Assembly: GCA_950295325.1 (NCBI GenBank)
Contig: OX485805.1
Coordinates: 3,720,501 to 3,784,500, forward strand
Length of the DNA: 64,000 nucleotides
DNA from: Polytrichum commune
Taxonomy: Eukaryota > Streptophyta > Polytrichopsida > Polytrichales > Polytrichaceae
Direction: 5' to 3'
Shown here piece by piece: positions 4,055 to 51,992 of this stretch. The notes below the pieces were generated by a model. It ran no database searches, had not been told where the DNA came from, and was given only the letters and a program-made list of their open reading frames with translations. The translations under genes were made by a program, and so were the position numbers. Every line of letters starts with the position of its first letter. Within the stretch, counting starts at the first letter, position 1.

Positions 4055-4345
4055 GTGCACCTATTACAGTAGATGGGTCTTAAATGCTTACTTTTCCCAA
4101 CTTGCATATGTTTCCTATTATACGAAACAAACTCTTAGTACAAGATGGTTAGCAAGTCTAAAACGAGGCCGTACCAACTCTTCATGTGATTTTTGGAGCT
4201 CATATGAATATATCATTGATTGTCACAATGAAGATTATTGTGCTCATTAATGGTTATATAAGTCCCCCCCCCCCATTTTATGTTGATTATTGAAGCTAGA
4301 CTGATCATCATATTCTAAGCATATATTATCGAATTAAGATGAGTA
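4055..4345 (-). mobile_element. Family A element with poly-C run
   Basis: It shares CAAGATGGTTAGCAA, GAGCTCATATGAATAT, a run of about 10 C at 4265, and TGATTATTGAAGCTAGA with other minus-strand copies. The far TIR end is missing. Confidence 0.7.
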
Positions 4346-4418
4346 ATCAAACTAGGTGCATGCTTTATGGATATTTCAAACATTCAAACATGTGTAGAGT
4401 TTGAGAATAAATAAAACT

Positions 4419-4790
4419 TATGGTATGAGGGCCTTAATCAAACACTGGTCTTACCCATACACCTATATTTGAGTGGTATATGGCAAAACTTGTAGTTAAG
4501 AATGAACATCAAAAAGGTATGTGTTACGATAAAATTGGATTATGTGCTCAAAATATAGCCACCACTTCAAGTTCAATAAGTAAGACAACTAAAAGGACCT
4601 ATGTGATCACTTAAAGAGCAAGAAGAATCTTCACTTTGACCTTTTATGACTCTTGCATCTCATCTACAATTTTGATGCTTGAAACGATTTTCTTCATGAT
4701 TCATGATTGCTAATTGGATGAGACAAGTCGTGATCCCATCCAACAACCAATAGTGTGTGGAGTTGAAAGGCTACTTTATAGGCCGAAGCA
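4419..4790 (+). mobile_element. Family A element, near full length
   Basis: It begins GGTATGAGGGCC and contains ACACCTATATTTGAGTGG, TTGTAGTTAAGAATGAACA and TGCTCAAAATATAGCCACC. The 3' half, GATGAGACAAG...AATCCCATCCAACA, is shared with 39464-39849. It lies immediately beside an opposite-strand copy. Confidence 0.8.
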
Positions 4791-5061
4791 CCCTACACAA
4801 ACACATTTAGACCATCATGCAAACAAGGACCATGTTGGTACTGCATCTTGCTACTTTTTGGAGCCAATGCGAATATTTTCTACACTCTTTGAAGTGAATC
4901 ACATAGATAACCTATAAAGATTATCTTTGAATATTTGCCTATACATTTACAAACCATTATAGGTCATTGTTCACGTTATGTGTACCCATACAATTGTATT
5001 CATGTACAAGCATCTCTTCCAATGACCCTAACAATGGCATATAATTTTAAAGAGTCGTAGA

Positions 5062-5436
5062 GGGAGGTATAGTGCAAGGTCCCATCATGGGCACTTTTGC
5101 CTTGACCTATAATTTTTACTGTTGGATCAAATCAGGAACTATCACAACCGCTTAGCGACTATTGTGAATCATACATATTGTCATCCTAAATTCCATAATC
5201 AGAGGTTAGTTGCAAATATTAAAGGAGGTCAGATTGATTATTCTCTTCGGTTTAGGATCATGTAGGCCTTCCCAATTGTGTTAATAATTGAGTACATAAT
5301 GCTTCTAGTATATTTTAAGCATATAGTCCAATATCATCATGACACATGTGTCTTTGGTGTGCATTCTAAACTATAGAACCTACCACTCAAGTATAGGTGT
5401 CCAATAAAAGAAGGTGACCACACATGCCAACATATA
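5062..5436 (-). mobile_element. Family A element
   Basis: Minus-strand copy: CATGTAGGCCTTCCCAATTG, ATAATTGAGTACATAATG, AGCATATAGTCCAAT, then CCACTCAAGTATAGGTGTCC and GGTGACCACA near the end. Confidence 0.75.
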
Positions 5437-5439
5437 TCA

Positions 5440-7200: not shown

Positions 7201-7202
7201 CT

Positions 7203-7385
7203 TGATGGTATTCAATGTCACTTACAACATTGCTTTAAATTTTTGTTGAGAATGTAAGTTTTCACAAAGTAAAGTCCATACAACCTATTTAAGTTTGTAT
7301 GGTAAAACATTAAATCTATGGTAAGGAGTTACGACCTTGCATAATTCTAAATAGTAAGTGACATTATATATCATAAATGATGTAC
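7203..7385. mobile_element. Family G MITE
   Basis: GATGGTATTCAATGTCACTT and AAGTGACATTATATATCATA are inverted ends. The inner sequence ATAATTCTAAATAGTAAGTG matches the right end at 29153-29378. Confidence 0.65.
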
Positions 7386-7389
7386 CATT

Positions 7390-8890: not shown

Positions 8891-8894
8891 AAAA

Positions 8895-9651: not shown

Positions 9652-9950
9652 TAAGGTAGATGGGTCCTACGTGGCTCGTTTTCTTAATTGGACCCCCCTT
9701 ATATTTGATAGGTATGTGATTCGGTGAGGATCAAAAAGCAAACATCATAAAGACACATGTTTAAAAAAGACTGGACTACGTATTCAAACATTAATAACTA
9801 CTCTACAATCAACAATGAACACAATTGGAAGGGCCTATGCATCGAGTTAAGAAATCAACAAACTTGCACTTCTGATAACCATAACTAAATCAAGGGAGGC
9901 CTAATTTCCAATATGATTTTTTTTGCAAACATTTCATCACAAAGTTGCTA
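9652..9950 (+). mobile_element. Family A element, subgroup of the VSR2 intron 2 copy
   Basis: It starts AAGGTAGATGGGTCC. GGTGAGGATCAAAAAGCAAA, GACTGGACTACG, AACACAATTGGAAGGGCC and AGGGAGGCCTAATTT match 40657-40950 in order. The right terminus is not clear. Confidence 0.75.
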
Positions 9951-10531
9951 ATGCATCACGAGTGTTGATGTGTAAACCTAATCGGTAGAGGTTGGAGAAC
10001 ATGAAAAACGAACCAAATCACACCCACGTACCTTAAAGCGGCCCTAAGAAGACCAATTACAATGAACATGGGGTTCAAAATGGTGATTTTCGGAGAAGGT
10101 CCATCCGCAATTACCGAAAGGCGAAATTATAAGGAAAGGTAAAGCAAACACTCGATTTGGACGCATAATGTAGACAAAAAGAACCAGAGGCACACCTGAA
10201 CGCATGATTCATGTGCCCAATGTTTATCATCATTGCAGGCCTTCAAAAAGCAAGCCAATCTCATTTGAGAAGCAAGATGTGGATGTTGTATGTCCTATTA
10301 TAAAACAACTGGCTCTTATTATAGTAGAATTTAGGACAGCTCTTCAATGCCCCTAGCTATGAACAAATTATGAGTCACAATGCGGGGAGGACTTAGAGGA
10401 ATTTCAGCATATGTAATTCGACTTGCCTATGTTTACATTGAAGAGTCGACGAAGGGTGTGAGGAATCTTTGCTAGAAATATATCTACGGGAGGAGAGTGG
10501 TTTAGGGTTTAGCCCGCATGGAAGAGTAGTA

Positions 10532-12120: not shown

Positions 12121-12352
12121 CCAACCCCGTAAGTAGGTGCTCCTTAAACCTTTTTGAGTTGCAGTGGAAGACTGATAGGAACTTGATCCAAGATTCAACA
12201 AGTGCCTATCTTTTTGATACAACATATTGTTAGTTGGGAGTCCGGATCAACCGTGATTCTTCGGTCCTTCTCCATTCTCTCTTCAAAGGTACTTGGTCTA
12301 TGAGTCCTTGGCTCTTTTGACTGGTATTGGAATGTTATGATAGAGGGGATCT

Positions 12353-12615
12353 AAGGTATGTGTATGTAGGCCTTGTTTGGCTACTTGTTCTTAATTGGAA
12401 GCATTCTTTAGTTGAACAAAACATGAGAAGGTTTGTAGTCAAGAATGGACACCAAAATGACATGTGCTCATAATACAAACACCATTTTATATTCAATAGG
12501 TTGGTAACACGATTGGGAAGGTTTGTGTAATCATTGAAGGTAACTATAATATGTGCTTCGACCATCTTACAATCTTGTAACTTGAAATGAGTTTTGGACA
12601 ATGTGCTCAAACGGG
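12353..12615 (+). mobile_element. Family A element, diverged
   Basis: It starts AAGGTATGTGTATG and contains GTAGTCAAGAATGGACACCA, CATGTGCTCATAATAC, ATTCAATAGG and GATTGGGAAGG in family order. Confidence 0.6.
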
Positions 12616-15576: not shown

Positions 15577-18500
15577 ATGAGGGAGAGTGTTGATGTTGGC
15601 AGAATGGCCACATTAGGTTTGATGTCGATGTTTGTGTTCGTGCATTTGGTGGCTCCGGTTTTGGGAGGGTTCGTGGTGGAGCAGAACAGCTTGACGGTCA
15701 CATCCCCGGATAGCTTGAAAGGCGTCCACGAGAGTGCCATTGGCAATTTCGGAGTGCCGCAATATGGCGGCACCATGTCTGGCTATCTCATTTACCCCCC
15801 AGTCAACATGAAGGCCTGTGAGGCCTTCAGCACTCCCTTCTTCAAGCCGAAAAATGCCGGCCAGCGGCCCTACTTCGCCCTCGTCGATCGCGGCGGTAAG
15901 ATCATGTCACCAGCAGTTGCGTCAAATTTGCTAAAACTTGTTAAATCTCGGTGCTTTACGGGCTCTTTGTCGCAATTTCAGCCAGCTGCGGATCTTAGCC
16001 TAACCTCTTTAGCGGAAGGTTAGGCTGTTCGCATGCTCCTGAAGAGCACTCTTTAGCATTTTGCCGCTCATAGATCTGGACATGTGGCGGAGACACCATT
16101 GTTTACAGAAAGACTTTGCTTCGGGATATGCTGTGAGGTTTTGGTCACATTGGTGTCTGCTGCGATTCCCATGTGAATTTTCTGGCTGGCGGGAGCTTCC
16201 AAACCTTTCTTTGCGGAATCGGCGTCTCTCTTATCTTTGAGCTTTGAGCAAAAAGAGAACCGTAGTGTACAGTCTTACATCTTCCACCCATGGCGGTATC
16301 ACTTACGAAGTCAATCTCCAGTAGAAATTCTAGCTTGATCCTGGAAAATCTGGGATACTGAAACCTTTGTCGACGTTATGTCCGGATGCTGACTAATCTC
16401 GTGACTTGCTTCGGGATATGTTGTGAGGTTTTGGTCGCATCGGTGTCTGGTGTGATTCCCATGTGAATTTGTTGCCTGGCGAGAGCTTCCAAAATACATT
16501 TGTGTTTCTCTCTTCTCTGAGCAAAGAGAGAACCCTAGTGTGTAATCTTTATCTTCCACCCGTGACGGTATGACTTATGAAGATTATCTTTATTGGAATT
16601 TCAAGCTTGATCCTGGCACACTGGAATTCTGTAACCTCAGTAGACCTTATGTCTGAATACTGACTTATCTCACCCTTTGCTTTGGGATATGTCGTGAGCT
16701 TTTGGTCATATTAGTGTCTGTCACATTGGTGTTTTTGATTAACAGGTGAATCTGGTAGAAATTTTCAGTCTCGGAGCAATAAGAGAACCCTACTGTGTAA
16801 TCTTCTACACATGACAGTATGACCTATGAGGTCAATCTCGATTAGAATTCCCAGCTCCAATGCTGGCACAATCGAAATCTGTAACTCAGTAGACAATATT
16901 CTGAACACTGACTAATCTTGTGTGAGAAACTTCACGCTAATTGTGCAATGTTTTGAATGTCAGTATATTCTGTGTAGAGGTTTATTACTGTGGGTCTAGG
17001 CAGGTTCACTTTACCACTGAATTTTGTAACTTGAGTGGCAATGTGCGAGAGCAAAGCTTGAGGTACTTTAGAAATGGCCGTTTTCCTATTGAATATGTGT
17101 TTTGTGGCTTGCAAACTGACTGAATATTCATGTGGTATCTGCAATGCAAGATCATTTGAAGAAGCTGCTGTGCAATTTGATGAGATAGAAATTGATTAGC
17201 CTAAATTTAGCATAGGGGGGGTTCTGCAGACTGTTACTTCGCAAACAAGGTATGGTATGCGCAATTGGCGGGAGCTGCTGGGGTGCTGGTGGCTGACAAC
17301 AAGCAGGAGAATCTCATCACCATGGATTCGCCGGAGGAGGATCCTGCCACTACAGTCTTTCTGCAAAATATCACGATCCCATCAGCTCTTATAGCAAAGG
17401 ACTTTGGTGACAAATTGAAAGCGGCTTTGCTAGCTAACGAGATGGTGAGCATCAACCTTGACTGGCGAGAGTCACTTCCCCACCCAGATGAGCGTGTGGA
17501 GTACGAGTTCTGGACCAACAGCAACGACGAGTGTGGCCCCAAATGCACAGCTCAAGTCAACTTTGTCCGCGACTTTAAGGGTGTTGCTCAAATATTGGAG
17601 CAAGGTGGATACACTCAGTTTACCCCACATTACATCACATGGTATTGCCCACAGGTATGTAAAAGACCTCAGTATAGTGGAGCCAACACTTAACTGTGTA
17701 TACATGCTCATTGTGTCTTGATTCTCCTTCGATTTTGTTTCTGTTGGATGGGTTCCATAAATTTGGGCATTGGTATATGCAAAACAGGATAATGAGGTCT
17801 AGATATGCATCTGTTAAGAACTCAGGCACCCAACATACAATAAGGTAAGCAGGCTGTAAATAAAACCTTTAGCTCTGCACTCACTTCTTGCAGGATATGA
17901 AACATGCAATTAGTGCAAGCTGATTGCCAATTCCAGATCGTAGCTGTAACCATTTCCCTTGTGATTTCTGAGCTCATATGAATATCTTATTCATTTTCAG
18001 ATGGTCATGTAGCCCCCCCCTCCCCCACTTATGCTGACTTATTGAGCCTAGAATGGTACATATATTCTGAGCATGTAGTTTAATCTCTTCTATACACATG
18101 TTGGTGTTACACATCTTAACCTCCACACCTGACCACACACCACTCAAATATAACTGTCTGATTAGGGAAAGTGACCATGAAAGGCCTGCTTACATTACTG
18201 CCATTGGGGATTGAACACATGAAGATAGTTCGAGCAAATGTAGGCATGTAGGGTTAACTATCTGATTTCAAGTAGGGGGGCCCTAAGATTTGTGTCGGTA
18301 TCAGAGGAGATACACAAGAAGTTTATTGACGATGAGGTAAAATTGTTGCTTTTGGGAGCACCCTTGTAATCTTTTCTTTGAACTCTTCGCAGGCTTTCAT
18401 TGACAGCAAGCAGTGCAAGGCACAGTGCATCAACAAGGGGCGTTATTGTGCGCCAGACCCAGAACAGGATTTCACCGTAGGCTATGACGGCAAACAAGTT

Positions 18501-21500
18501 GTGATTGAGAATCTAAGACAGCTATGTGTTTACAAAGTGACAAATGACAGTAAAATGTCATGGAGGTGGTGGGACTATGTGACAGACTTTCAGATTCGAT
18601 GCCCAATGAAGGAGAAGAAATATGGGCCAGAATGTGCTGAAGAAGTACTGAAATCCCTTTGTAATGCTCTCTGTACCATGACCTTAATTCTTACTTGGAG
18701 TGGAAAAGAGGGTTGCTGTTTGTGATTTTTGTGAGTGTGGTTTTCTCTTGACTTGAGGGGTTTGCAGTCATTTAGTTTTTCTGACGCTTCAGCTATTTTT
18801 GGTTGCAGCCATCAGTGTGGATGATGTTCGCAAGTGTATGGGTGATCCAGAGGCTGACCAAGATAACCCGATTTTGAAGAACGAGCAAGATGCACAGGTT
18901 AGGCTTCGCAGATCATTGAATGGGTTCAAATTTTGTCCACCATTAGAGTTATTCCTAAACTCAATAGGATGAATTTTTGTCAGGTGTTGGTCCCCTTTCA
19001 ATTTTCCACTGGTTGTTTTGCTATTAAAATCAATAATGTCTTTCCACTTGTAGTGCATGCTTGGAGGTAGTCTTTGAATTTGAATGAAGAGCAACCTAGT
19101 TGGGTTCATTTGGAGCCAAATTCATTTTGGCACCTCTTGGTATACCAAAATAAGTCTAACCCTCAATGAACCGATATAGAATGTTCTGACCAGAAGTCCC
19201 ATTAAATCAAAAGATAACTTGATTAGGCCTGCAAAGTCATTGCTCAATGGTGTCTACTTGTTTTTCTTGTTTATGTCAATGTTTAAATGTGGGAAACTTG
19301 TTATTTGATAGTCTGCTAGATTCTTGCTTATTGACCTTAAGGACTATGGCAGGTTGGTTCAGGCACACGGGGTGATGTTACCATTCTGCCAACTCTTATG
19401 GTCAACCAGCATCAATATCGAGGTTTGTGGCATATTCCCTGTAAAAGTTTTGTCAATCCTTAAATGGGAATTGATCTTATTGCTGGAACTAAGGATGGTC
19501 TGACCAGCTACTCTATCTTGTCACTAAAAGGTCGTGTTTGCCTTTTGGCTTTCATTTTTGCTGCAGGGAAGCTTGACAAAGCTGCTGTTTTGAGGGCCAT
19601 TTGCTCTGGCTACCAGGAAACTACAGATCCCCCTGTTTGTTTGAGTGACTCTGTGGAAACAAATGAGTGCTTGACAAACAACGGAGGTTGTTGGAGTAGT
19701 GGCAACATCACTGCTTGCAAGGCATGTTACAAGTATCTAATGTCACCAAGTTAGAGCAATTTTTACAATTGTTTTACACATGTCTCTCTTTGATGGCCAT
19801 GAGTTTAAACCAGTTTCTAGGATATGACCGAAACTGATTTCAATCAGGTTAAACACACTGAAGACTTGAAGAATCCCTTGTTGTTAAGGATTGCAGGCTA
19901 ATGCATTTTGAAGCAGTTATAGTGTTAAGATCCAACTTATTAATTGTTCTAAAGTTTCATATTGTGACTTCCTGTATAGTATACCTTGCAAACACTATCA
20001 ATACTGCAAGTATATCTTAGACCTATGTTGCCTTTCATGTGCGCAGGATACATTCAGGGGCCGGGTTTGCGAATGCCCACTTGTTTCTGGTGTGCAGTTT
20101 CAGGGTGATGGCTACACAAAATGTGAAGGTGTGGCTCTTCATTGTATATTATACCAAACATTTTGATTAGCATTCCTTGCATCAGCAATCTCACACTATC
20201 AAATCTTTGTTGCATGCAATATCTCATAGAGTAGTTCATATAGTATTGTCACCACAAGCAACCCTTGTCCAACCTAGGGAATTCATAGTATCAGAGTGTC
20301 AGGGAGAATGGTAAAGTCCTTGGATGGTAATGGGTTCAATAAGGGCGGGTTTATATTAGAGTCTGCGTCTGAGAAACTTGGGGTACAAATCACCCCTGAA
20401 ATGGACTCAAGATTGGACCCAAGTGTGATGTTCGATTTCTCAATTTGGTGGGAAAGTGGTTCCACATTAACACTAACAGAATTGTCCGATTTTGGGGTAT
20501 TTTTGGCCCTGGACCTTAGTCTATATTCACCTAAGTGAATGGATGTGCTAATGGTTCCATTGTGGAAACAGCTATGGGTCCTGGGCGCTGCAAGATCAAC
20601 AATGGTGGATGCTGGGCGGAAACACGAAATGGTGTCACATACTCTGCCTGTCAGGTATATTAGTTGAATATACACACCAGATTATGTCTGCATACATTAT
20701 GATTCGTGCATTCAAACTAATTAGAACTTGATTTCAATTTCGACCTTGTAATTGATAGATAGATGACTCAAATGCCTTGCTGAGGTATGCCATGTGCTTA
20801 AAGTGATGATAGCTTAGTGCTTTTTAAAATAATTTGTTGATCAATGATTGTACTCAACAAATTGAGGCCTTTTTTCATGTTCTTGGCTTGTGTATGTTCA
20901 GGATAATGACAACCAAGGATGCAAGTGTCCTGATGGTTTTGAAGGCACCGGTACTAACACCTCCGGTTGTGTAGGTACGTTCATTCGTACTATTGGAACT
21001 TGAACTCAGGACTACCAAGCCTATGCAAATGTCAACTGGTTGATAATGTCTAGCATGAAAAGAGAGTGTTGTCTTAGGTACATGGGCTTTATGTGGTCAC
21101 TCCTTTTAATCAGACACCTATATTTGAGTGGTATATGGGAAGGGTTTTACCAAAGAACAGAAACCAGAAAGACACCTGCTACAATGAGATTGGACTATAT
21201 GCTCAAAATATAGTCCAATCTCACTGTTCTGGGCTAAATAGTTAACTATGGAAATGCCTATGTGTTCGCTTACAGAGAGACTTCCTATAACTTTTGCAAC
21301 TAAAATTCTGAAAGTTGAACTAATAATCTGTGGGATTCACAATTGCTATTTGGATGATGGAATTCTTGGTCTGATTTAATGGTCAATATTGGCTTTAAAG
21401 TTGGCTGTGCCCACAATAGGGCCACATTCCCTAGATTTCATGGCTTTTAAAGTTATTCTTGATGCTGAGGCTGTTTTTGCTTGTTGCAGATATAAATGTA

Positions 21501-23392: not shown

Positions 23393-23504
23393 TGTCACTC
23401 TAGAGAAACAACTAATTTGAAACCATCTTGATATACCTTCAGTCTCATTAGCCTTTTTAGCTTCCCCGACTTTAAAATCAATATCATGTCATTGCGACAA
23501 ATAC

Positions 23505-23852
23505 ATTTACATGGTGTGTGATCTGGTGTGGCTCCACAAACCCATCCTAGAAAAAGAAGTGACACATGTTAAAAAAAAACAAGATTGGACTACGTGCTCA
23601 AAACACGATAACCATTCTGGACTCAACAGAAAACATCATTGTGGGCATCCTATACGACCATTTAACGAGCATAAAAATCTTCACTTTGGTAGTGCGTAAG
23701 ATATTCATACGAGCTTCTAAAATCATGAGGGAAGTGGCTATGGCTTCGACTTGGATGTGGTAAGCATCTCATGCAAATTACGTGTTCCATATCCTAGACG
23801 AAGTGAGGTAGTTGGATAAAGTAGCCATTCAAGTGAAGACCCATCATCCACC
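23505..23852 (+). mobile_element. Family A element
   Basis: GATTGGACTACGTGCTCAAAA, ATTCTGGACTCAACAG, ATATTCATACGAGCTTC and ATATCCTAGACGAAGTG are in family order, ending with the AGTAGCCATTCAAG...GACCCATC terminus. The left terminus is eroded. Confidence 0.7.
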
Positions 23853-24179: not shown

Positions 24180-24775
24180 ACATGATCATAACTAGAAAAT
24201 GTCTGAAAGTTATAGGAGTGCAAAGTGAACATGTTGTTGTTAAGTGTCATGCAGGCCCTCCCAATTGTGTTCATTGTTAAACCCCATACTAGTGTTTCAA
24301 CTCCAAGCTTGTAAAGTATGTGGTCTTACTGTGAGCACATCCAACTCCATAAACAAATCTAGTCGTTGGATTGGATCGTGAATCATCTCATTCAATTAGC
24401 AATTGCAAATTTTGTCGATTGTCACTTCGAGTTTCGAATCCAAAGGCGAGATGCAAAGGTCGATGTGAAGTTTATGTTTCTCTTTGGTAATCTGATAGGG
24501 CCCTCCTACTTGTGTATTGATCTACTTTGAGTCCATAACCCAATTTCATTGTAATACATGTGTTTATGGTGTCCGTTCTATAATACACCATGCCATATAC
24601 CACTGAGATATAGGTGTTTGATTAAGAAGAGTCACCACATAAGACACACAATCTCAATTTAGTCCAAATTCATCGTACCACAAAGTCTTGTGGTGTCGGT
24701 TCTTCACCATAGACCACTCAAATGTAGGTGACCCATTAGGTAGGGCGGCCACATATAAGAATTGGGTTTACATTA
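24180..24775 (-). mobile_element. Cluster of two or three family A fragments
   Basis: Family blocks recur: CATGCAGGCCCTCCCAATTG at 24250, a second GGGCCCTCCTACTTG near 24498, and the ATATAGGTGTTTGATTAAG end at 24617. Another CCACTCAAATGTAGGTGACC lies at 24715. This suggests nested or serial insertions. Confidence 0.65.
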
Positions 24776-25711: not shown

Positions 25712-26068
25712 GAGCCCGGTTCCATCTGGAGGTTGGAAGACGTCTCGATCCAGTGTAAAGTTCCGCCCATCTCCATCACTTCCTATTGACAAAAAAAAGG
25801 AAAGCAAAAAGACAAGCTCTTGACTGGACTCACACTAATAGGTGCGTGAAGAATGTCGCAAAAGTAGACAGAATTGCTTGCATAAAAATGGAGGCGGGCG
25901 ACCCCACGTGCATGGCATGGGGCCTACTGCATGGGACACCTTTTAAAAGTGGGTGCCTCAATAGTGAACTTATCATACTAGGCTGAAATTCCGAAGCAAA
26001 GTCGGGGAGAATTTTATTTGATCTGCAAAGAATTGTTGTTGGAATCACAGTTGCCGAGTATATTATAA

Positions 26069-26150
26069 GGTATGTGGGTGTTGTTCAATCCGTTTCTCAC
26101 ATTCTTCAACTTCTACCGATCAAAATTTACACAATGAAAGTTGCGTCGCA
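26069..26150 (-). repeat. Solo family A end fragment
   Basis: AAGGTATGTGGGTGTTGTTC with CACATTCTTCAAC matches the start of 51619-51992. Family interior sequence does not follow. Confidence 0.45.
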
Positions 26151-26250
26151 TTAGCAAAATCTACGGTGATGCATTTGCAAAAAATCGGATTCACAAGTGG
26201 ATCTCACTCTTACAGTGGCGCGTCACTGAGGTGATGTGAACATTTCCCTT

Positions 26251-29823: not shown

Positions 29824-30332
29824 GTAAGGTAGGCGTGCCCATTTTGGTTGCTTGTCTTTATCATACACCTATATTAGAGTGGTATATGATAAGCATTCTA
29901 GGCTCAATAGTCAACATGAATGGGGGAACCTATATGATCACTTAATGGGCACGAAAATTGTCATTTGTGATGATAAATTAGATAATCACATTAGTTCCAA
30001 AATTTATGATGAAAGTGGCCACAACCTCAATTTAGATTTGCTAATCATTTTTTTCTTCTTTTTTTTGGGAGATAGAAGGTCGACAGGCTAGCGCCAATGC
30101 ACAGGAGGCAGTTGACCACCTGACAAGTTTTCCTTCGGGTAAAGAGGAGATTTCAAAGCCGGGAATCGAACTGCCAACCTCTTCCTTGAGATTTGGGTAT
30201 CTCTCCACCATCATCCGGTAGTTTAGGGTCGTCTCGGACCTTTGCTAACCATCTTGTACTCGTCACTTCTTTCATATCCTAGCATAAGTGGGTTAGTTGG
30301 GAAAAGTAGCCATTGAAGACCATCTACCTTAC
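29824..30332 (+). mobile_element. Family A element interrupted by a SINE
   Basis: The termini AAGGTAGGCGTGCCCATTTT and TTGAAGACCATCTACCTT are inverted repeats. ACACCTATATTAGAGTGG, ATTCTAGGCTCAATAGTCAA, CTTAATGGGCACGAAAATTG and CAACCTCAATTTAGATTTGC precede the insertion; ATATCCTAGCATAAGTGGG and AAGTAGCCATTGAAGACC follow it. Removing 30048-30251 restores a contiguous family sequence. Confidence 0.88.
30048..30240 (-). mobile_element. tRNA-derived SINE with target-site duplication
   Basis: A 193-bp insertion is flanked by direct repeats TTTGCTAATCA (30037-30047) and TTTGCTAACCA (30241-30251). On the minus strand a tRNA-like head contains GATGGTGGAGAG (A-box-like) and GCAGTTCGATTCCC (B-box-like). 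The element ends in an A-rich tail, seen here as the T-run at 30048-30068. Direct duplications of this length fit LINE-type reverse transcription. Confidence 0.85.
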
Positions 30333-32039: not shown

Positions 32040-32300
32040 AAAATATGATACCAATCCAACACTTGTAGTTAAGAACAAACACCCATGAACACTTGCCATG
32101 ATAAGTTTGAATAATGTGTTCGAAATGTAGACATGATTCTAGGTTAAATAGTCACCACTTAAGTATAAACGGAATATTCACTTTGATTAGGCTCCTATAA
32201 CTTTTACATATTCTCTCCGTTTGTGAAATTTGAAATGCCAAAATTCATGATCCGCAATTGGTGATCCGATCCAACGGTTAACATTGTTAGAGGAGTCCGA
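32040..32300 (+). mobile_element. Family A element, partial
   Basis: CTTGTAGTTAAGAACAAACA, ATAATGTGTTCGAAATGTAG, GATTCTAGGTTAAATAGTCA and ATTCACTTTGATTAGGCTCC follow the family order of the 39464-39849 subgroup. Neither terminus is preserved. Confidence 0.6.
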
Positions 32301-33635: not shown

Positions 33636-33639
33636 ATGA

Positions 33640-33945
33640 GATGGCTTCCGAATCCAAACAGAGGTTGTAGCTACTTTCCTCACAATTTTCATAGCTCAAA
33701 TGAATATTTTATTCATGATAAAAGTGAATATTCTTGTGCTCATTAAATATTATGGTCATATAGGTCCTCCCAATTATGTTGATTACTGGACCTAGAACAA
33801 TTATCGTAATTTAAGCAAGCAATCCAATCTCTTTTAAATTTGTGTATTATTCTTGGGGTATTTGTGTTTGGAGCCACATCTAACTACATACCACTCAAAT
33901 ATAGGTGTCCAATTAAGTGACCGAATTATGCATGTCTATCTAATG
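33640..33945 (-). mobile_element. Family A element
   Basis: Minus-strand blocks: CTCAAATGAATATTTTATTC, GGTCATATAGGTCCTCCC, TTGATTACTGGACCTAGAAC, AAGCAATCCAATCTCTTTT, CCACTCAAATATAGGTGTCC. At the hot spot that is poly-C elsewhere, this copy reads GGTCCTCCCAAT. Confidence 0.78.
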
Positions 33946-37362: not shown

Positions 37363-40300
37363 ATGTTGTGGGGGATGATGAAGAGGGGAGGAGGAGCAGG
37401 AGGAGGAGGGAGGATGGGGTCGGGGTTGTTGTTGTTGATGTTCTTGTTTGTGCGGCCGGCATGGGGAGGGTTTGTGGTGGAGCAGAACGCGCTGACGGTG
37501 ACATCGCCAGAAAAGTTGAAAGGGACCTACGAGAGCGCCATAGGCAATTTCGGAGTGCCGCAATACGGAGGCACCTTGTCCGGCACACTCAAATACCCAC
37601 CCGTCAACACGAACGCGTGCGACAAGTTCAGCACGCCGACCTTCCATGCGGAACCGGGAGCGCGCCCTTTCTTCGCCCTCGTCGATCGTGGCAGTACGCG
37701 CCCCCCCCCGCCGCCCAAATTTTGCCTAATTTCAAATGATCTGTTCAAATTGTTGTTTGTGTGTTTCTTTTCGCCTTCAAAATTTATTTCTTGAACACCC
37801 TGTGAAAAGATCTCCTAACTCACCTACGACAGAATTTTGCAAAGGTGATGTTGTGGTGTTGGGTTATACTTACACCGCGGAACAATTTTAGCTGTCGGTA
37901 TGTATGTGAGGTAGACGTGCCTTAGATGGATACTTTCTCTCTGCACCCACTTCTCGAAGGATATGAAATACATCGCAATTATTGCGAGATGATGAGCATG
38001 TCCAAATCGCGTCCGTAGCCATTTGCCTCAGAATTTTCGGAGCTCATATGAATATCTTATTAACTATCAATATGAAGATGTTCGTGTTCATTAAGTGGTC
38101 TTATAGGTCCCCTTAATCATGCTGATTATTGAGCCTAGAATGGTTAGCAGATTTTTAGCACGTAGTCCAATTTCTTTTCAACACATGATGCCTTTTTAGT
38201 GTTGGTTCTTAGATCCGCGCCCAACCACGTACCACTCAAATATAGGTGTCCGGATTATTGTTGTGTTAGATTTAAGGCACGTTTACCTTATGCATATATG
38301 TGCCGGGATGAAGTATCTATCCACGATAACTCTTTAGTTCTATTTGAGTTATCCTCTAGGTCAACATGATATTTGGTTGGGAGTTGGTGTTTTTGGGTAT
38401 GTTTGGTAAGTTTCGATGGAGGTTTGAAAGTAGAACATTCTATATCAGTTGGAGGGTTAACTCATTTTGGCATGCCAAGAGGTGCTATGCTGAACTAATG
38501 CTATGCTGATATGATGCTGTACTGAGTTTGGCCCTCAATGAACTGAATTAGGTTGCCTTTTATTCAAATTCAAACACTAACTCCAAGCATGTATGCACCA
38601 GAAGTGGAAGAAATTAGTGATGTTGTATGCAAAACAACCAATGAAATAGAAAATCGTAGGGATCAAACTCTTGACAAAAGTTTCATTGAGTTAAAGGGTG
38701 ACTTTAGTAGGTACCTGGCGTAATTACTCATTCTTTGAGGAAAAGAAGCTCAAGTTGGTAGCTCTCAGCAGATGCAAGGAGGGATGGCGGTAAGGATAAG
38801 TGGTCCATGCTTCCACTTGAACACTCTCTTCTGTCTGAGGAGGTTGTTCTAAGTGGGGCAATTTTAGCTTCAGTTGATTTGTTATTTTCCAAATGACTGT
38901 CAACCAGGCTGAGAAATTCCTGAGATTCGAACTCTTCATTAAAGTCGATGTGTATTAAATTAAGCTCCAATAGATTCTGCAGTCCGGTCACAGGAAATTC
39001 AAATGACCTCAGAAGTGAGGTCTGTGGCTTATGAAGAGGCTAGTACAAGAGAAACAGGAAATCCTATCTTAGTTAGATATTTGGTAGGTTTGAGAAATAA
39101 CTTAATCACCCCAAGTCCAGAGCTCCAATGTTCTGTCAGTTTTGACATGACAATTCCTTGATACTCAATGTCCAGAGTCGTGTGCAATTCCGCATTAGAT
39201 TCTTCATACATCACCGACTTGGATTGCTTTTATGTGGGTGAACTTTCTGGAAGTTGTATTGCTGGGATTGCGTAAATTTTCTCTGTGGGGGCAATTAGGT
39301 CACCTTTTTTGACTGCACGATGCATTATACTTAATTTTGAACCGTTCAAACATCTGCTAACAGTGAGGACTAATTCTGGTAATGAGGAGGCACAACTTAG
39401 TGGATATGCATGAATAATACCTATGTGGTTGCACAACATGGTGTAATACTTAATGAGTGAGTAAGGTATGCAGGCTTTAATCAAATATTAGTCTTATGCA
39501 GACGCCTATATTTGAGTGGTATATGGCATGTAGTTCTTAATTGTAGTTAAGAATGGGCACCAAAAAGACCTGTGTTTTTGATGAAAGATTGGACTATGTG
39601 CTCAAAATAAAGACACCATTCTAGGTTCAGTAATTAACATGATTGGGAAAGCCTATGTGATTTCTTGAAGAGAAAGAAGAGTCTTATCTATGACCTCCTA
39701 TAAATTTTGCATCTCGACCCCGATTTGACACTTGAAATGGCAATCTCTATGATTCACAATTTCTAACTGGATGAGACAAGCCGCAATCCCATCCAACAGC
39801 CAAAAGTGTTTGTAGAGTTGGAGTGTCAGTAATTGGCCTGCATAACTTATGTGTGTATGTGGGGTTTTGCAGGCTGCTACTTTGCAAAGAAGGTGTATAA
39901 TGCACAACTGGCTGGTGCCGCAGCAGTGCTTGTGGCAGACAACAAGCAGGAGAATCTCATCACCATGGACTCGCCGGAGGAGGATCCTGCAACAGCAGAC
40001 TTTCTCCAAAGCATCACGATTCCATCAGCTCTTATTAAAAAGGACCTGGCCGACCAATTGAAGACGGCTTTGGCTGCTGATGAGATGGTGAATATCAACC
40101 TGGACTGGCGAGAGTCGCTTCCCCACCCAGATGAGCGTGTGGAGTACGAGTTTTGGACCAACAGCAATGACGAGTGTGGCCCAAAATGCACAGCTCAAGT
40201 GAACTTTGTCCGTGACTTCAAGGGCGTGGCTCAGTTGTTGGAGAAAGGCGGATACACCCAATTCACTCCCCATTACATCACATGGTATTGTCCAAAGGTA

Positions 40301-43300
40301 TGTTGATCAATATCTTCTTCACGAAACTCCAACTTCAGGCAATTTGTAGCTTTTCTTCTCTTCCTAAGCTAAAGCCTTCTGGACACACAGCTTAAATCAC
40401 TGCTGTAGTGGTCAAGCCATGAGATTTTTGCCGACGCGTCTTTTCCTAATTGGATATGAGGTGTATTTATTACACTTAATCAATGACCATGCCATGGCTT
40501 GACCACTATGTCTGGCAATGTACATGTGTCACCCTGCCATTGGCTGTAGTAGGCACCCAATACCCACCTTACTGCTATTGTGGTTTATTAGGATGAGCGC
40601 TTAATACGGGCTTACTATAGGGCTCCTCACATCCATTACCTACTTCATAGAGGACTAAGGTATACGGGTGTTATTCAGTAACTCTTCTTAATAGGACACC
40701 TATATTTGATTGGTGTGCGGTTTGGTGAGGATCAAAGAACAAACACCGTAAAGACACAAGTTTAAAAGAGATTGGACTATGTCTTCAGATTTAATCAAAT
40801 ACTCCACACGCAAAAGTGAACACAATTGAGAGGACCTATGTATTCAGTTAATAAATCAACAGACATGCAGTTCCAATAACTACAACTAAACCAGGGGAGG
40901 TCTAATTTTCTATCTGATTTTGAACATGAAAGCCGTACTGAATAACACCCAGCAACTGGAGAGAGAGAGAGAGAGAGGCATGTTGATGATGGAATTAGGG
41001 TCCTGTGTAACACCTGTCTGATATGGGAACGCTTTGATGTCTGTCAGTGGTTGAGGAGATGCATGAGGCAACTACTAATTTCTAGAAGGGAAGGCCGTAG
41101 TGTAAATGTGTGATGAGATGCACTGTTTGTAATCTGTTTGATGAACTGTGCGCAGGCATTTATAACGAGCAAGCAGTGTAAGGCACAGTGCATCAACAAC
41201 GGTCGCTATTGTGCACCAGACCCAGAACAGGATTTCACCATAGGCTATGACGGAAAACAAGTTGTGACTGAGAATCTCAGACAGCTCTGTGTTTACAAAG
41301 TGACCAACGACAGCCATACGCCCTGGAAGTGGTGGGACTATGTGACAGATTTCCAAATTCGGTGCCCAATGAAGGAGAAGAAGTACGGGCCAGTGTGTGC
41401 TGAAGAAGTACTGAAATCCCTTTGTAATGCTCTCTGTACCATGACCTGATTTCCTACCTGAAATGGAAAGAGATATGATGTGGGGTGGGTGTGTGGCAAT
41501 GTTGAAATAAACTGATTTTGTGATTCCTATAATTTGGAGTTCTGACACAAGTTGAGGTATTATGCTAATGTTACAATTACCTTGGTTGCAGCCATCAGTG
41601 TGGATGATGTTAAGAAGTGTATGGGAAATCCAGAGGCTGATGAAGATAATGCAATTTTGATTAATGAGCAAAACGCACAGGTATGTGTTCAGCTTTGTCA
41701 GAGTCTATGTTTGTAAATTTTAAGAGTGCTGGTTGTCTAAATTGTCTTGGGCTTGCATGTCTTACCTATGCAAGCTGACAATACATTTATTCTTGAGCAT
41801 ATTTTGACTTGTCATTCCATAAACTTTGGCAGGTTGGTTCTGGTACACGGGGCGATGTTACCATTTTGCCAACCCTCATCATCAATCAGCATCAATATCG
41901 AGGTATGTCACCTAATTCTTCAAGTTCTGTATATTGCATGTCAAATGCCTACGAAACCGCCCATCAGCTGGTTTTGCATAGAAGAATCACATGTCTGTTG
42001 GATCAAAAATATGCAGACTCTGGTTATGATATTGGCCTTAACTTCTGGTTTTGTCTCCATCTTGCTCTCCACAGGGAAGCTGGATAAGGGTGCAGTGTTG
42101 AAGGCCATCTGCTCTGGCTACCAGGAAACTACAGACCCCCCTGTTTGTTTGAGCGACCAAGTCGAGACAAATGAGTGTTTGAATAAAAATGGTGGCTGTT
42201 GGATGAGTGGCAACATAACTGCGTGCAAGGTCTGCTCTGCAAACCTTTTTTTGGGTGGTTTATAGTCCTCTACACCAGAGCCATTGAGAGCTCAAAAAAA
42301 GGAGCCTTCTCATTGGCAGGGAGCCTCTTATGCTTGTTTGAGCTTTCAACTTGTAGGTGGTGCCTTGATGAACCCATGTGGAATGATTGCGACAAGGGCT
42401 CGGTCAAAATCTTAAGCTACCTCCATGAGGTAGTTTAGGAATGTCGAGAGTTTGAGCTCTAATTTTGTGGGCCCAAAGCCAATGAACTTTTAAGCATTCT
42501 TGGGCTTGTCATAAATGCCTCTTTGTTTAGTAACATCCCCCTCGATATCTCACTTTGAGCATGGCCACTTTTTATACTTGCTCGAACTGTTGAGCGCTTG
42601 AAGATTGGTCAAGCTCTCAATAGTTTGAGTTTTGATGAAAGCTTGTCAACTCAAACTCCCAAAACTACAAGTTTGAGCTCTCAACTCGAGCTCTCAACTT
42701 TCTAGTGTAAATGGGGCCTTAGTTTATGGGTTGTGTTTTTAGCTGAATTTTGCAACCAATCTGCTAGAACTTGGAAGCTGTATTTTGATATGAAATAGCT
42801 GGATTTCTGTTTATTGTAATCTTAACATTTGGATGGAGAATGGAACGTTGACATTGCTCCACCAATCTCACTGTTGGAAAGGACCTTGGAGCTGAGTTAC
42901 TGCAGTTTTTGTTGACAGGATACCTTCAGGGGCCGCGTCTGTGAATGCCCTCTTGTATCTGGTGTACAGTTTGAGGGCGATGGCTACACTAAATGTGAAG
43001 GTACATTCTATTAAACTTCTGTGCTCAATGATTTCGTTATTTGCACACATATCACAATCTTGAACCCTTCTTTTTGTTGATTGGTTTGAATATGATATTT
43101 CATGGAGATTGTTTCTGTGCTGGTTTCTACTGAAAGGGTCTAGAAGTTGAAGTTATTGTTTACTAAGTCATAGGGTCACAGCATCCCAATTGGGTCAACT
43201 GCATGTGTGTGCAATGAGACATTGTTACCTGTGATAACATGAGGTTGTATGGAAACAGCAAGAGGTCCTGGGCGCTGCAAAATAGACAATGGTGGATGTT

Positions 43301-47417: not shown

Positions 47418-48229
47418 CCAATACGCATCCAAATGTCCAAAAACATGTTTAAAATACCCAAATATCGTCATGTTATTGATAGGTCAAACTATAACAAATT
47501 ATCATCAAATGCTTTCATTTTTGGCCATTTGAAATAAAATGAATTTGGTTTAAAATCCAGGAAGCCAAAAGGTTTATGGGGCTAAAAGTACATTAGGATC
47601 TTTCAAACCAACTAATTATTCCAATACGCATCCAAATGTCCAAAAACATGTTTAAAATACCCAAATATCGTCATGTTATTGATAGGTCAAACTATAACAA
47701 ATTATCATCAAATGCTTTCATTTTTGGCCATTTGAAATAAAATGAATTTGGTTTAAAATCCAGGAAGCCAAAAGGTTTATGGGGCTAAAAGTACATTAGG
47801 ATCTTTCAAACCAACTAATTATTCCAATACGCATCCAAATGTCCAAAAACATGTTTAAAATACCCAAATATCGTCATGTTATTGATAGGTCAAACTATAA
47901 CAAATTATCATCAAATGCTTTCATTTTTGGCCATTTGAAATAAAATGAATTTGGTTTAAAATCCAGGAAGCCAAAAGGTTTATGGGGCTAAAAGTACATT
48001 AGGATCTTTCAAACCAACTAATTATTCCAATACGCATCCAAATGTCCAAAAACATGTTTAAAATACCCAAATATCGTCATGTTATTGATAGGTCAAACTA
48101 TAACAAATTATCATCAAATGCTTTCATTTTTGGCCATTTGAAATAAAATGAATTTGGTTTAAAATCCAGGAAGCCAAAAGGTTTATGGGGCTAAAAGTAC
48201 ATTAGGATCTTTCAAACCAACTAATTCCT
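47418..48229 (+). repeat. Four perfect tandem copies of a 203-bp unit
   Basis: CCAATACGCATCCAAATGTC recurs at 47418, 47621, 47824 and 48027, exactly 203 bp apart. By eye the copies are base-identical, the last ending in CCAACTAATT. The unit is AT-rich, has no open frame of note, and does not resemble the other repeats. It lies between the two pogo-like remnants. Confidence 0.95.
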
Positions 48230-48566: not shown

Positions 48567-48588
48567 GTGGGGGGGGGAGGTGGACTTA

Positions 48589-49076
48589 CAGTAGTCTCCT
48601 GCTTAAGTACGCACTTTGAACTAGAGCCGTTGGTGCGCACTTAGTTGGTAGGTGCGTACTTTATTCATATCACCAATGTTCCAAATAGAAGTCTTCAATG
48701 AAGAAGAACCACCTATCAATGACAAAATCCAACCTATCGAGACATTTGCTGAATTTGAAAGTGCTACCGACTTCAAAGGTTTTGAAGCTCTATACAACAC
48801 TATCCTCGACATTGAAGACCAATTGCTCTGCTCCGATGTTCAAACAGAAGTTGGACAAATGTATGATGAATTGCAAGGACCGTTTGAGACGTTTCAACAA
48901 AACGTTAACAAACATACATTGAATGTCAAGCGTAAAAAATTCATGCATTTGTGGCAAATCACTTTGCATGACATGTTCAAACAATAAAGTATGAACCCTG
49001 ATTTTTGTCAAAAAAATTGCGCACTTAACCGGGATGCATACTTAAATGGGTGCCTACTTAAGCGGGAGATTACTTG
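48589..49076 (+). pseudogene. Deleted pogo-like transposon, right copy
   Basis: CAGTAGTCTCCTGCTTAAGT at the left and ACTTAAGCGGGAGATTACTT at the right are the same TIRs as in the left copy, in opposite orientation. An open frame from about 48652 to 48987 encodes an acidic, probably C-terminal transposase segment (FKGFEALYNTILDIEDQLLC). The same sequence, frame-broken, lies in the left copy. The HTH and catalytic parts are absent. Confidence 0.8.
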
Positions 49077-49268
49077 GTTACTTAATGAACATAAGATTTT
49101 ATTTAAAATAATGAATAAGTTATTCATATGAACCCTAAAAATTAATGAAAAATGTGGTTACGGCCTCAATTTAGATTTACTAACCATCTCATACAAATTG
49201 TGTGTTTTATATCCTAGGAGAAGTGGGCTAGTTGGAAACAATAACCATTTAAGATGCACTTACCTAAG
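49077..49268 (+). mobile_element. Family A 3' half beside the pogo-like remnant
   Basis: CTTAATGAACATAAGATTTT, GTTACGGCCTCAATTTAG, CCATCTCATACAAATTGTG, ATATCCTAGGAGAAGTGGG and the ACCATTTAAGATGCACTTAC terminus. It begins directly at the right end of the pogo-like element, so the break is probably that element's insertion. Confidence 0.7.
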
Positions 49269-49288
49269 CTAACGGTTTACATTCTAAG

Positions 49289-49670
49289 GAAGATAGGGTC
49301 TTAAAAAGGTCACTTTTTCTTACTAGCGTACTTCTCTTATGATATGAACCACACAATTAGTACAAAGATGGTTAGCATATCCAAATCAAGGTCATAGCCA
49401 ATATCTTCATAATTTGCAGAACTCATATGAATATTTTATACATTATCAAAGTGAAAATTATTGTGTTCATTAAGAAAATCATAGAACCCCCCTCCCCCTC
49501 CCCCAATCATATTGATTATTGAACTCAAATTAGTTATCATAATTTGAGCACACAGTCCAATCTCTTTTAAGTACATGTTTTTGTGATCTCCGTTCTTGAA
49601 GCCATGCCAAAGCACAAACCACTCGATATAGGTGTCCTAATTAGAAAAGTAACCAAATAAGAGTTGCATA
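49289..49670 (-). mobile_element. Family A element with poly-C hot spot
   Basis: It starts GATAGGGTCTTAAAAAGGTC. GATATGAACCACACAATTAG, AACTCATATGAATATTTTAT, a C/T-interrupted poly-C run at 49486-49503, TTGATTATTGAACTC, CACAGTCCAATCTCTTTTAA and GATATAGGTGTCCTAATTAG follow. It is inverted relative to the fragment just to its left. Confidence 0.82.
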
Positions 49671-49674
49671 AATT

Positions 49675-51615
49675 ATTCAATTCCATAATAGTGTTATGTG
49701 GGATTGACAATATTCTATAAAATATTCTTGGATATTTCCACATTCAGTGTGAATGAGGGAAATATCCACGAATATTATGTGGAATATTGTCATCCCACAT
49801 ACCATTCTTATGGATCTGAATAATGTTATATGTCTACCTTATGGTCTACATTGTATTTTATATGAACCCCTGACAAGAAGTATTTTATTCAAAGTTTCAA
49901 ACTTGGTCTTTAATATCCAAAGTATATTCAACATATGTAGCGACTGTACAATAATATTTGTGGTATGTACATGCTTCCAAATCAATTATATAAATCTACA
50001 TCTTTCAGGTGTTTCTTTTCTTTTCTCTTTTGTATATATGTATCTCCCTCTTTAGTATGACACGTTTGCGAAACACAAAAAGTCTTATTTTGGAGGTGTC
50101 GTCTTCTCATTAATATGACAAATGGCGTAAAGTTGTTGTATTATTGAGGGAATAAGAAAACATAAGTAATATGAGCTTTATCTGTGTGGGTGTATATATA
50201 TGCACACACACAACAAGTTTAAGCAATATAGATGGTATGAAATATTAATTTATAACTCCAAACAAATACAAATACTCTTAAGAACGCTTGAAATAGGAGT
50301 CCAACGATCTTTGGTGTTGCCTACCCAAGTTATCAATTGTCATCTTATCTAAATTCCCCGTTAACTTTTGAGAACTAATAATTTCATTAACACCAAAATA
50401 TAAAGAGTCTCTAATAAGGAACTAGACAATAATGATGCATGAAATTTAGCATCACTAAGCTTTATTTTAGGTGGAGCAACATCATCCATATCTATTTAAT
50501 CTAGATCAACACTAAGATCAAAGTCTTGTGTAGAATTGGTTCCCAAAGTAGCATCCACCAACTCATCAATACTCAATCCTAGCTCAACAATCTCTTCCCG
50601 TTGGAGACTATAAGAATGCAAGAGAGTGCACAAGATAATGGTGATACTATATCACCCGTGTACAAGGCAACATACTAGGTAGGAGGCCACTCTAACCCTA
50701 ACCATTCATTCTACACTAGTAACCCTAATTATCATTAAGTTCCCAATGATAAGTGATGTTCCCAAGTACGTCCCAAGTGAAAATGGATGTATTTTAGATG
50801 TACATAACATAGATAAAAAGAATTTTAACATCTACCTCTTTAATATGACAAAATGGAGATTCTAAATGTCCCATTATGGAGTGTCGTAGTTGTATAAAAG
50901 AGGGAGTTTTGAACTAAAAACTTTGGTCTCACAAAAAAACGAAAGTCGTATTAACGAGGTGAGACTGTACATAGTTTTCAGTGGGACATTCTCACCTTAG
51001 AGTAAGGCTCAAAAGTAGGTTAAATTTTCCAAAATATATTTTGGTGGGGCTCTTGAGACCTTCTGAGAAGAAGACCACAACCAACAACTTTAAATCTCCC
51101 ATGGTTTAAATACGAGCAAACACTTCAATTTATAGAGAATGTGATATGATTCCTTCACATGGAATCTAATGGCATATGACACTCTTGGTGCAATTAAGGT
51201 CATTTCTCAACTAACATGCACATGGAGCTAAATCTTTTGTCAACTAAGTTACCGTAAACGAATGCTCAAAATTCTAGAGAAATTCAAAATCTCTTTGAGT
51301 CTTTCAATGTATAGGTAGTGTGATCATTGGATTGGTGTTCCCAAGAATTAGTGTGTTTTACTATGTGTCACACTAAACGCCAAAACCTAATTAAACTAAT
51401 ATGACTTAAATTATGATACCAAGAATCAAGTCAAATTACTATAAAACAAAACAATACATCAAGGTCACACTCATTTTCATATGAAAAGTTTAATTGTGCA
51501 ACTCATTAACTACACAAAGAGATATGTATTATGGTCTAAGATTAGTGTGAGGCACACAAGTTCGCACAATCAAGAAGTATAACTGTGACCTTTTGTAATT
51601 GGTGTATTTCACACT
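49675..51615. other. No gene seen
   Basis: Apart from repeat H copy 2, AT-rich intergenic sequence. A palindrome-like pair ATATTCTATAAAATATTC and GAATATTATGTGGAATATT flanks 49710-49790. Confidence 0.4.
50040..50150 (+). repeat. Dispersed repeat H, copy 2
   Basis: Direct copy of 48455-48566 with CCCTCTTTAGTATGACAC and GGCGTAAAGTTGTTGTATTA. A weaker relative may lie at 50830-50970. Confidence 0.7.
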
Positions 51616-51618
51616 GTA

Positions 51619-51992
51619 AGGTATGTGGGTGTTATTCCGTTCATTTTTCATGTTCTCCAACGGATTAAATATATACGACAAAACTTGTGTTGTATTTGCA
51701 AATTTGTCATGAAACATCAACACAAATTGGATTGAAAATCTAACTTTTCATGATTTAGTTATGATAATTGAAAGTTCATTTTTGTTGATTCCTTAACTGA
51801 ATACATAGGTCTTCCCAAGTGTTTTTACTATTGAGTGTGGGGTAGGTAATTTTTTTCTAAGATGTTGTCCAATCTCTTCTAAAGGTGTGTCCTGATGGTG
51901 TTTGTTCTTTGATCTCACCAAACCACACGGCAATGAAATATGGGTGTCCGATTAAGTAAGTTAAAGTAACCGAATAGCACCCGATGCCTTCA
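51619..51992 (-). mobile_element. Family A element with clear TIRs
   Basis: AAGGTATGTGGGTGTTATTC at the left and GAATAGCACCCGATGCCTT at the right are imperfect inverted repeats. The interior has GTCCAATCTCTTCTAAAGG, TTCTTTGATCTCACCAAACC and ATATGGGTGTCCGATTAAG. It is closest to the subgroup at 40657 and 9652. Confidence 0.85.

What the first reader, a model, noticed from the sequence alone, without database searches (positions are those of the whole stretch)
4055..51992. One TIR family (family A) occurs about 19 times in 64 kb
Copies near 4.06, 4.42, 5.06, 9.65, 12.35, 17.84, 21.08, 23.5, 24.2-24.8 (two or three), 26.07, 29.8, 32.0, 33.6, 37.9, 39.5, 40.7, 49.1, 49.3 and 51.6 kb share the same internal order and AAGGTA-N-GGG/C type inverted ends. 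They are 300-400 bp, on both strands, and carry no transposase. That is about one per 3.4 kb, so the family must be very abundant if the window is typical. I do not recognise it as a named family.
Basis: partly seen in the sequence, partly recalled or inferred. Interest (0 to 1): 0.75.

Follow-up and report, generated by a model that had tools for sequence, protein, structure and literature searches.

The report
Abundant plant MITE family, TA-flanked
The window holds about twenty old copies of a short non-coding mobile DNA element that occurs tens of thousands of times in this plant genome, an ordinary kind of element but apparently an undescribed family whose moving enzyme was not identified.

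Summary
Profile models hit the window in 22 blocks covering 8.5% of it; ten shuffled windows and the reversed window give none. The host is a plant with seven large contigs, 408 Mb in all. Copies are mostly 350-390 bp, too short for a transposase. Subfamily A1 ends in TAAGGTAGACGTGCC, A2 in TAAGGTATGYGGGTGTTATT, a third type in TAAGGTA(A/T)GCAGGC. Flanks show TA and no longer duplication; in L034 an A2 copy nested in an A1 end has TA doubled. This is a MITE group of the TA-target (Tc1/mariner) type without Stowaway's ends. Unselected DNA carries about one copy per 9 kb, so the window is about threefold enriched; extrapolated, about 46,000 copies and fragments (21,000-87,000). Copies are old. 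In 26 transposase loci examined I found no clear autonomous partner; one, L094, has facing A fragments around a mariner-like copy and stays ambiguous. Ordinary in kind, apparently unnamed.

The parts
4066..4325 (+). A1 copy, 3' part lost
   Evidence: A1 profile positions 2-256, E 4e-40
4420..4641 (-). divergent copy (similarity to the 39.5-kb copy extends to 4765)
   Evidence: A1 157-375, E 2e-34; 75% identical to 39462-39820
5256..5424 (+). partial copy, core region
   Evidence: A1 189-342, E 5e-20
9652..10035 (+). full-length A2 copy, both ends TAAGGTA type
   Evidence: A2 1-377, E 5e-104; training copy
12352..12544 (+). weak decayed copy with a TAAGGTATGTGTATG end
   Evidence: A2 5-202, E 0.004; A1 E 7e-4; end
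   Evidence: A1 219-342, E 6e-8
17841..18197 (+). full-length copy of a third type, ends TAAGGTAAGCAGGC / GCCTGCTTACATTA, between two exons of a vacuolar sorting receptor gene
   Evidence: A1 1-341, E 3e-58; ends read; exons
21076..21275 (-). partial copy, one end plus core
   Evidence: A1 181-376, E 5e-24
23490..23832 (-). near full-length A1 copy
   Evidence: A1 16-345, E 2e-59
24208..24283 (+). short weak fragment
   Evidence: A2 E 5e-4, A1 E 0.002
24395..24755 (+). one or two adjoining partial copies
   Evidence: A1 84-339 E 1e-14 and 253-342 E 2e-8
26066..26207 (-). A2 3' fragment with a TAAGGTATGTGGGTGTT end
   Evidence: A2 240-377, E 4e-22; end
29825..30331 (-). A1 copy split by a ~190-bp insert (30051-30240), both ends TAAGGTA; two of the 22 blocks
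   Evidence: A1 312-377, 79-244 and 1-92; ends
32070..32265 (-). weak decayed copy
   Evidence: A1 84-300, E 5e-5
33638..33941 (+). A1 copy, 5' end lost
   Evidence: A1 78-376, E 2e-56
37907..38290 (+). full-length A1 copy, ends TGAGGTAGACGTGCC / GGCACGTTTACCTTA; its inner part was the first query; training copy
   Evidence: A1 2-377, E 9e-117
39462..39849 (-). full-length copy, ends TAAGGTATGCAGGC / GCCTGCATAACTTA
   Evidence: A1 159-377, E 5e-31; ends read
40656..40950 (+). A2 copy inside the second vacuolar sorting receptor gene, 3' end damaged; query and training copy
   Evidence: A2 1-266, E 4e-90; flanking exons
49064..49265 (-). A1 5' half, head to head with the next copy
   Evidence: A1 3-204, E 6e-25
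49299..49669 (+). near full-length A1 copy
   Evidence: A1 13-346, E 2e-58
51617..51990 (-). full-length A2 copy; training copy
   Evidence: A2 5-377, E 6e-96

Best explanation
The repeats are a large, old MITE group: non-coding DNA transposons of about 350-390 bp with ~15-25 bp terminal inverted repeats inside a TA target duplication (TA|AGGTA...TACCT|TA). They were cut and pasted by a transposase supplied in trans by an element of the Tc1/mariner (TA-target) type. They amplified in several subfamilies, each with its own distal terminal sequence behind a fixed AGGTA, and stopped long ago. Shown: inverted ends, TA flanks, a doubled TA in a nested case, length too short for a transposase, abundance, and even decay along A1. 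Inferred: movement in trans, the superfamily of the transposase, and its extinction or rarity.
For: Ends and lengths: alignments of 22 A1 copies and 25 A2-type sequences; of 28 full-length A1-type elements 23 are 370-386 bp, range 343-395. Flanks: the two flanking bases agree on both sides in 14 of 22 A1 elements (13 TA, 1 CA) and 13 of 21 A2 elements (all TA), the next best boundary giving 7 in each; nine-base identity is at best 0.39 and 0.32. Nested site: in L034 the A1 end GTGCCTTAGATGG reads GTGCCT-TA-[AGGTA...TACCT]-TA-GATGG; L047 has the same insertion with its right flank mutated; L042 shows, read by eye, an A2 3' end joined at the same TA. Abundance: 883 and 378 terminal matches against 2 and 0; 5,082 and 4,544 first-look candidates for one A1 and one A2 copy, 40 of each scored; 9 blocks in 80 kb of unselected DNA. 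Subfamily ends: own ends differ at 4.3 of 11 distal positions, ends of different subfamilies at 6.4 (46 elements). Decay: in A1 a hand-chosen core and the rest are equally conserved (0.892 each); in A2 0.905 against 0.841, but that set is biased towards the core by its query.
Against: No autonomous element with these ends was established, so the superfamily rests on the TA duplication alone. The TA statistic is biased: the end templates contained TA, and 20 loci were chosen by a pattern starting with TA. Of those 20, 18 carry A1 sequence, but only 4 show an opposite end within 4 mismatches of a 15-base template inside 550 bp. No empty site other than the nested ones was found: flanks of 28 elements against the DNA then held and two joined-flank genome searches gave no match across the junction. 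The nested site could be read as a TTA duplication if the terminal repeats differed by one base; the base before TA varies at other copies. L034 and L047 may descend from one composite copy.
Confidence: 0.85

Rival explanations
1. MITEs of the Mutator (9-bp) or hAT (8-bp) type whose longer target duplications have eroded.
For: Mutator MITEs are the commonest kind in plants (41.5%; abstract passage of PMC12550479). Mutator-type transposases are present: PF10551 gave 142 matches from 150 scored of 271 candidates.
Against: At 12-25% divergence per copy an old 9-bp duplication should still match at about 0.6-0.8 per base (arithmetic). The best of 25 boundary shifts gave 0.39 (22 A1 elements) and 0.32 (21 A2 elements). 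The nested insertion doubles two bases. No PF10551 locus was fetched and hAT was not searched, so their termini were not compared.
Confidence: 0.05
2. Tourist-type MITEs of PIF/Harbinger (TWA target).
For: Flanks are T/A-rich; three-base identity reaches 0.62-0.65 at some shifts, mostly carried by the TA.
Against: The base before the left TA varies (a, t, c, g) while the right side reads CCT-TA, so no third base is consistently duplicated. PIF transposases were not searched.
Confidence: 0.05
3. MITEs moved by, or derived from, the mariner-like (PlantMar-type) elements present in this genome, as Stowaway MITEs are.
For: TA target. Mariner-like copies with TACTCCTTTGGTAAGATGA-type ends occur in L051, L094-L097 and L099-L101; A sequence lies next to or around three of these eight (L051, L094, L097). 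In L094 two A 3' halves face outwards on both sides of a mariner-like copy, 78.5% identical over 121 bp as inverted repeats about 2.7 kb apart, which a decayed element with A ends would also show.
Against: Where seen, the mariner-like copies have their own ends, unlike AGGTAGACGTG or AGGTATGYGGG. In L051 and L097 they interrupt one A copy at different points (about profile positions 72 and 340), as nested insertions do. In L094 neither outer end keeps TAAGGTA and a third A fragment lies on one side, as in a cluster of fragments.
Confidence: 0.1
4. Moved by the pogo-like or Tc1-like elements of this genome.
For: Both kinds target TA and are present in many copies (PF03184: 150 matches from 150 scored of 984 candidates; PF13358: 149 from 150 scored of 457).
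Against: Their ends, where found, begin CAGT (CAGTCTAACCTTGATAAT, CAGTGACTGCCAAAACTGAG, CAGTAGGGGGACAAAAAG and others), unlike A. Many pogo copies look young while A copies are old.
Confidence: 0.05

Closest known systems
Stowaway MITEs (Tc1/mariner, plants)
   Same: Short, non-coding, TA target, high copy number, often near genes (passages of PMC12595863).
   Different: Ends begin AGGTA, not Stowaway's CTCCCTCC (that motif is recalled); no mariner partner with these ends was established.
Emigrant / Lemi1 pogo-type MITEs
   Same: TA target, MITE paired with a pogo transposase (recalled).
   Different: The pogo elements whose ends were found here begin CAGT; A copies do not.
Tc1-like elements of plants (PMC4054914, abstract and outline)
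   Same: TA target (recalled); Tc1-like transposons seem present in this genome.
   Different: Their ends here begin CAGT.
Tourist MITEs (PIF/Harbinger)
   Same: Similar size and abundance.
   Different: TWA target; here TA only.

Membership tests
MITE (general) | 50-800 bp, no room for a transposase | tested here: met
   Full-length elements 343-395 bp (28) and 366-396 bp (21)
MITE (general) | terminal inverted repeats | tested here: met
MITE (general) | target site duplication | tested here: met
   Two flanking bases agree in 14 of 22 and 13 of 21; doubled TA in nested L034. No orthologous empty site available
MITE (general) | high copy number | tested here: met
MITE (general) | related autonomous element | tested here: inconclusive
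   No clear one in 26 loci (16 DDE_3, 10 DDE_1) of 299 matches listed; L094 ambiguous
Stowaway | TA target duplication | tested here: met
Stowaway | CTCCCTCC-type terminal repeat (recalled) | tested here: not met
   Ends are AGGTAGACGTG or AGGTATGYGGG
Tc1/mariner superfamily | moved by a transposase of that superfamily | not testable with these tools
   No partner established
Mutator MITE | 8-11 bp target duplication | tested here: not met
   Lengths up to 10 bp tested
Tourist | TWA target duplication | tested here: not met

The most novel reading that the evidence does not exclude
Family A marks an undescribed lineage of plant TA-target transposons, neither Stowaway/PlantMar nor pogo nor Tc1. 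Its transposase recognised a fixed AGGTA tip plus a subfamily-specific distal repeat; both ends of each subfamily changed together as the partner changed. The lineage left tens of thousands of MITEs while its autonomous elements died out or were overlooked.
Probability: 0.25. Interest if true: 0.5.

Novelty: new member of a known kind. Interest (0 to 1): 0.3.

Why it matters
The group fills about 3% of unselected DNA in this genome and 8.5% of the window, including stretches between exons of both vacuolar sorting receptor genes, so it shapes gene structure here and should be masked in annotation. A TA-target MITE group with non-Stowaway ends and no clear partner is a small puzzle about which transposase drove it. 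For MITEs in general the result is ordinary.

Tried and rejected
Whole-element pattern: 0 matches; its gap (255-284) was set too short for ~378-bp elements, so this says nothing.

Autonomous element of ~10 kb: two facing pairs of A ends 10.3-10.6 kb apart (C4, C3) were read. They are separate A copies, one with a ~400-450-bp insert, and not one element. A facing pair 1.86 kb apart (L069) is an A1 copy split by a ~1.4-kb insert that I did not identify.

Insertion hot spot in the A1 terminal repeat: 3 of 20 exact-end loci had an A2 end at the same TA. A genome-wide exact pattern for that junction found only those 3, so no hot spot is claimed.

Terminal-repeat homogenisation within copies: own 5'/3' ends are no more alike than permuted ones within A1 (26 elements, p 0.95) or A2 (20 elements, p 0.34); 13 of 59 full-length elements were dropped for damaged ends.

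Selection on the core: not supported in A1; A2 is biased by its query.

Empty sites: flanks of 28 elements against the DNA then held gave no match across the junction. Joined flanks of L037 and L018 gave none in the genome either; the L037 left flank is shared by four other places together with the first bases of the A copy.

RNA genes: no Rfam match at gathering score and no tRNA in the window. Papers: five terminal 12-14-mers occur in 7 held papers; their titles (human, mouse and cell work, Mycobacterium, chickpea markers) suggest primers, which I did not check (listing only). Host name: not resolved (listings only).
Full report
Observation. Self-comparison of the window shows many divergent repeats at the named places on both strands. 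One copy, 37946-38251, was searched in the whole genome: 41 matches were listed from 40 scored of 5,082 first-look candidates; apart from itself and one 64-bp piece they are 79-83% identical. The genome has 407.8 Mb in 64 contigs, seven of them 42-78 Mb. Three window frames match the vacuolar sorting receptor domain, in two related genes, so the host is a plant; its name was not resolved.

Anatomy. Aligning 22 copies gives subfamily A1: about 378 bp, 5' end TAAGGTAGACGTG(T/C)CTTA, 3' end TTAGGCACGTCTACCTTA. A second query, 40655-40962, gave A2 (40 matches from 40 scored of 4,544 candidates, most covering the first ~267 of 308 bases). Twenty fetched copies, three window copies and two nested copies align to about 378 bp with ends TAAGGTATGYGGGTGTTATTCGGTT and its inverse. 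A third type with TAAGGTA(A/T)GCAGGC at both ends is seen at 17841-18197 and 39462-39849. The consensus of A1 and that of reversed A2 align along their whole length, best in a ~150-bp core. Within A1 that core is no better conserved than the rest (0.892 each); within A2 it is (0.905 against 0.841), but the A2 copies were found with a query over that part. I see no good evidence of function.

Counts. The A1 model gives 23 window hits; both models give 22 merged blocks (5,447 bp); shuffles and the reversed window give none. Ten unselected 8-kb pieces give 9 blocks in 80 kb, in 6 of the 10 pieces. The window is denser: 22 in 64 kb against 9 in 80 kb, one-sided p 0.003; merging hits up to 200 bp apart gives 18 against 9, p 0.017. 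Extrapolation gives about 46,000 blocks per genome (95% range 21,000-87,000), fragments included, and about 2.9% of the DNA. Ten pieces are a small sample. Terminal patterns give 883 and 378 matches against 2 and 0 in controls.

Target duplication. Of 28 full-length A1-type elements, 22 had both ends within 4 mismatches of the template; the two flanking bases agreed in 14 of 22 (13 TA, 1 CA), the next best boundary in 7. For A2, 21 of 23 full-length elements were usable: 13 of 21, all TA. No longer repeat stood out. The templates contain TA, so this is partly built in. Independent support is the nested case: L034 carries an A2 copy inside the terminal repeat of an A1 copy with TA doubled; L047 has the same with its right flank mutated. 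Against a picture of clean elements: of 20 loci picked by an exact terminal match, 18 carry A1 sequence, yet only 4 show an opposite end within 4 mismatches of 15 bases inside 550 bp.

Age. Copies closest to the queries differ from their consensus by a median K2P of 0.109 (A1, 22 sequences) and 0.125 (A2, 23 sequences), CpG-type sites left out. Seven alignments of unselected copies are 64-87% identical to the A1 consensus. At a recalled grass rate of 1.3e-8 per site and year the closest set means roughly 8-10 million years; the host's rate is unknown and the unselected copies look older.

Partner. PF13358 (DDE_3) gave 149 matches from 150 scored of 457 candidates, PF03184 (DDE_1) 150 from 150 scored of 984, PF10551 (MULE) 142 from 150 scored of 271. 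I read 16 DDE_3 and 10 DDE_1 loci. In 12 of the 26 (L051, L052, L054, L055, L057-L059, L061, L062, L067, L068, L094) I accepted an inverted terminal pair around the domain; these begin CAGT, or in L051 and L094 CTCC/TCCC. L094 also has a better-scoring pair that belongs to A fragments (see below), and L099 has a weak four-mismatch pair that I set aside as chance. In the other 14 no pair was accepted, though six (L095-L097, L099-L101) showed mariner-like ends. A sequence lies on both sides of the domain in 2 of 26 by the models (L051, L094) and in L097 by its A-type end. L051 and L097 are A copies broken by a mariner-like element at about positions 72 and 340, as nested insertions do. L094 has two A 3' halves facing outwards around a mariner-like copy, 78.5% identical over 121 bp, with no intact TAAGGTA end and a third A fragment on one side. 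I read it as a cluster of fragments, but a decayed autonomous A element is not excluded. No MULE, PIF or hAT locus was fetched, so the search for a partner is incomplete.

Comparison with print. A MITE review gives TA for Stowaway and TWA for Tourist (passages of PMC12595863); a survey of 207 plants reports Mutator as 41.5% of MITEs (abstract passage of PMC12550479). PlantMar is the plant mariner family (section 7 of PMC7325037; further passages). Tc1-like elements are known from plants, scarcer in angiosperms than in moss (abstract and outline of PMC4054914). Carrot work mentions a Stowaway-like MITE with terminal repeats that differ from its families (passages of PMC6881990), so deviating ends are not unheard of. 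A search for five terminal oligomers found 7 papers whose titles do not concern transposons (listing only). This supports 'not found in the held library', not 'not in print'.

Verdict. The family is a genuine, very abundant, old MITE group, most likely of the TA-target type. It is a new member of a known kind. The open point is which transposase used AGGTA ends.

Noticed in passing
window 15.6-22.1 kb and 37.4-45.0 kb: Tandemly duplicated vacuolar sorting receptor genes with different A copies between their exons.
   Followed up: partly
L059, L061 (genome C3): Pogo-like DDE_1 elements with the same 20-bp ends (CAGTCTAACCTTGATAAT; 2.03 and 1.59 kb). In one search, 23 of 150 listed matches have a 397-aa open frame (by my count), many with equal scores, which suggests a recent burst in a plant.
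   Followed up: partly
L052, L054, L055, L057, L058: DDE_3 elements of about 1.6 kb with CAGTGACT ends, and a 2.15-kb one with perfect CAGTAGGGGGACAAAAAG ends, perhaps Tc1-like; such elements were reported as scarce in angiosperms (PMC4054914 abstract).
   Followed up: no
L094:63-207 and 2579-2741: Two A 3' halves facing outwards around a mariner-like copy: chance cluster or decayed larger element.
   Followed up: partly
L051, L097: Two of eight mariner-like copies sit inside A copies although A fills only about 3% of sampled DNA; small numbers.
   Followed up: no
L041, L047, L048: A repeat starting TTA|GGGCCACTTCACACACGAGCC, possibly a Tourist-type MITE; in L041 it sits at the TTA of an A1 terminal repeat (read by eye).
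   Followed up: no
window 47413-48226: Four nearly identical (99.5-99.8%) tandem copies of a ~204-bp unit.
   Followed up: no
L037, L038; genome C5:41694283, C6:33603526, C3:9014252: The left flank of an A1 copy is shared by five places together with the first bases of the A copy, so this A1 copy was carried along in a larger low-copy repeat.
   Followed up: partly
L058:1275-1791: GTAAGGTAGCCACC(A/C)CCG recurs every 86 bp (7 times) next to the 2.15-kb element.
   Followed up: no
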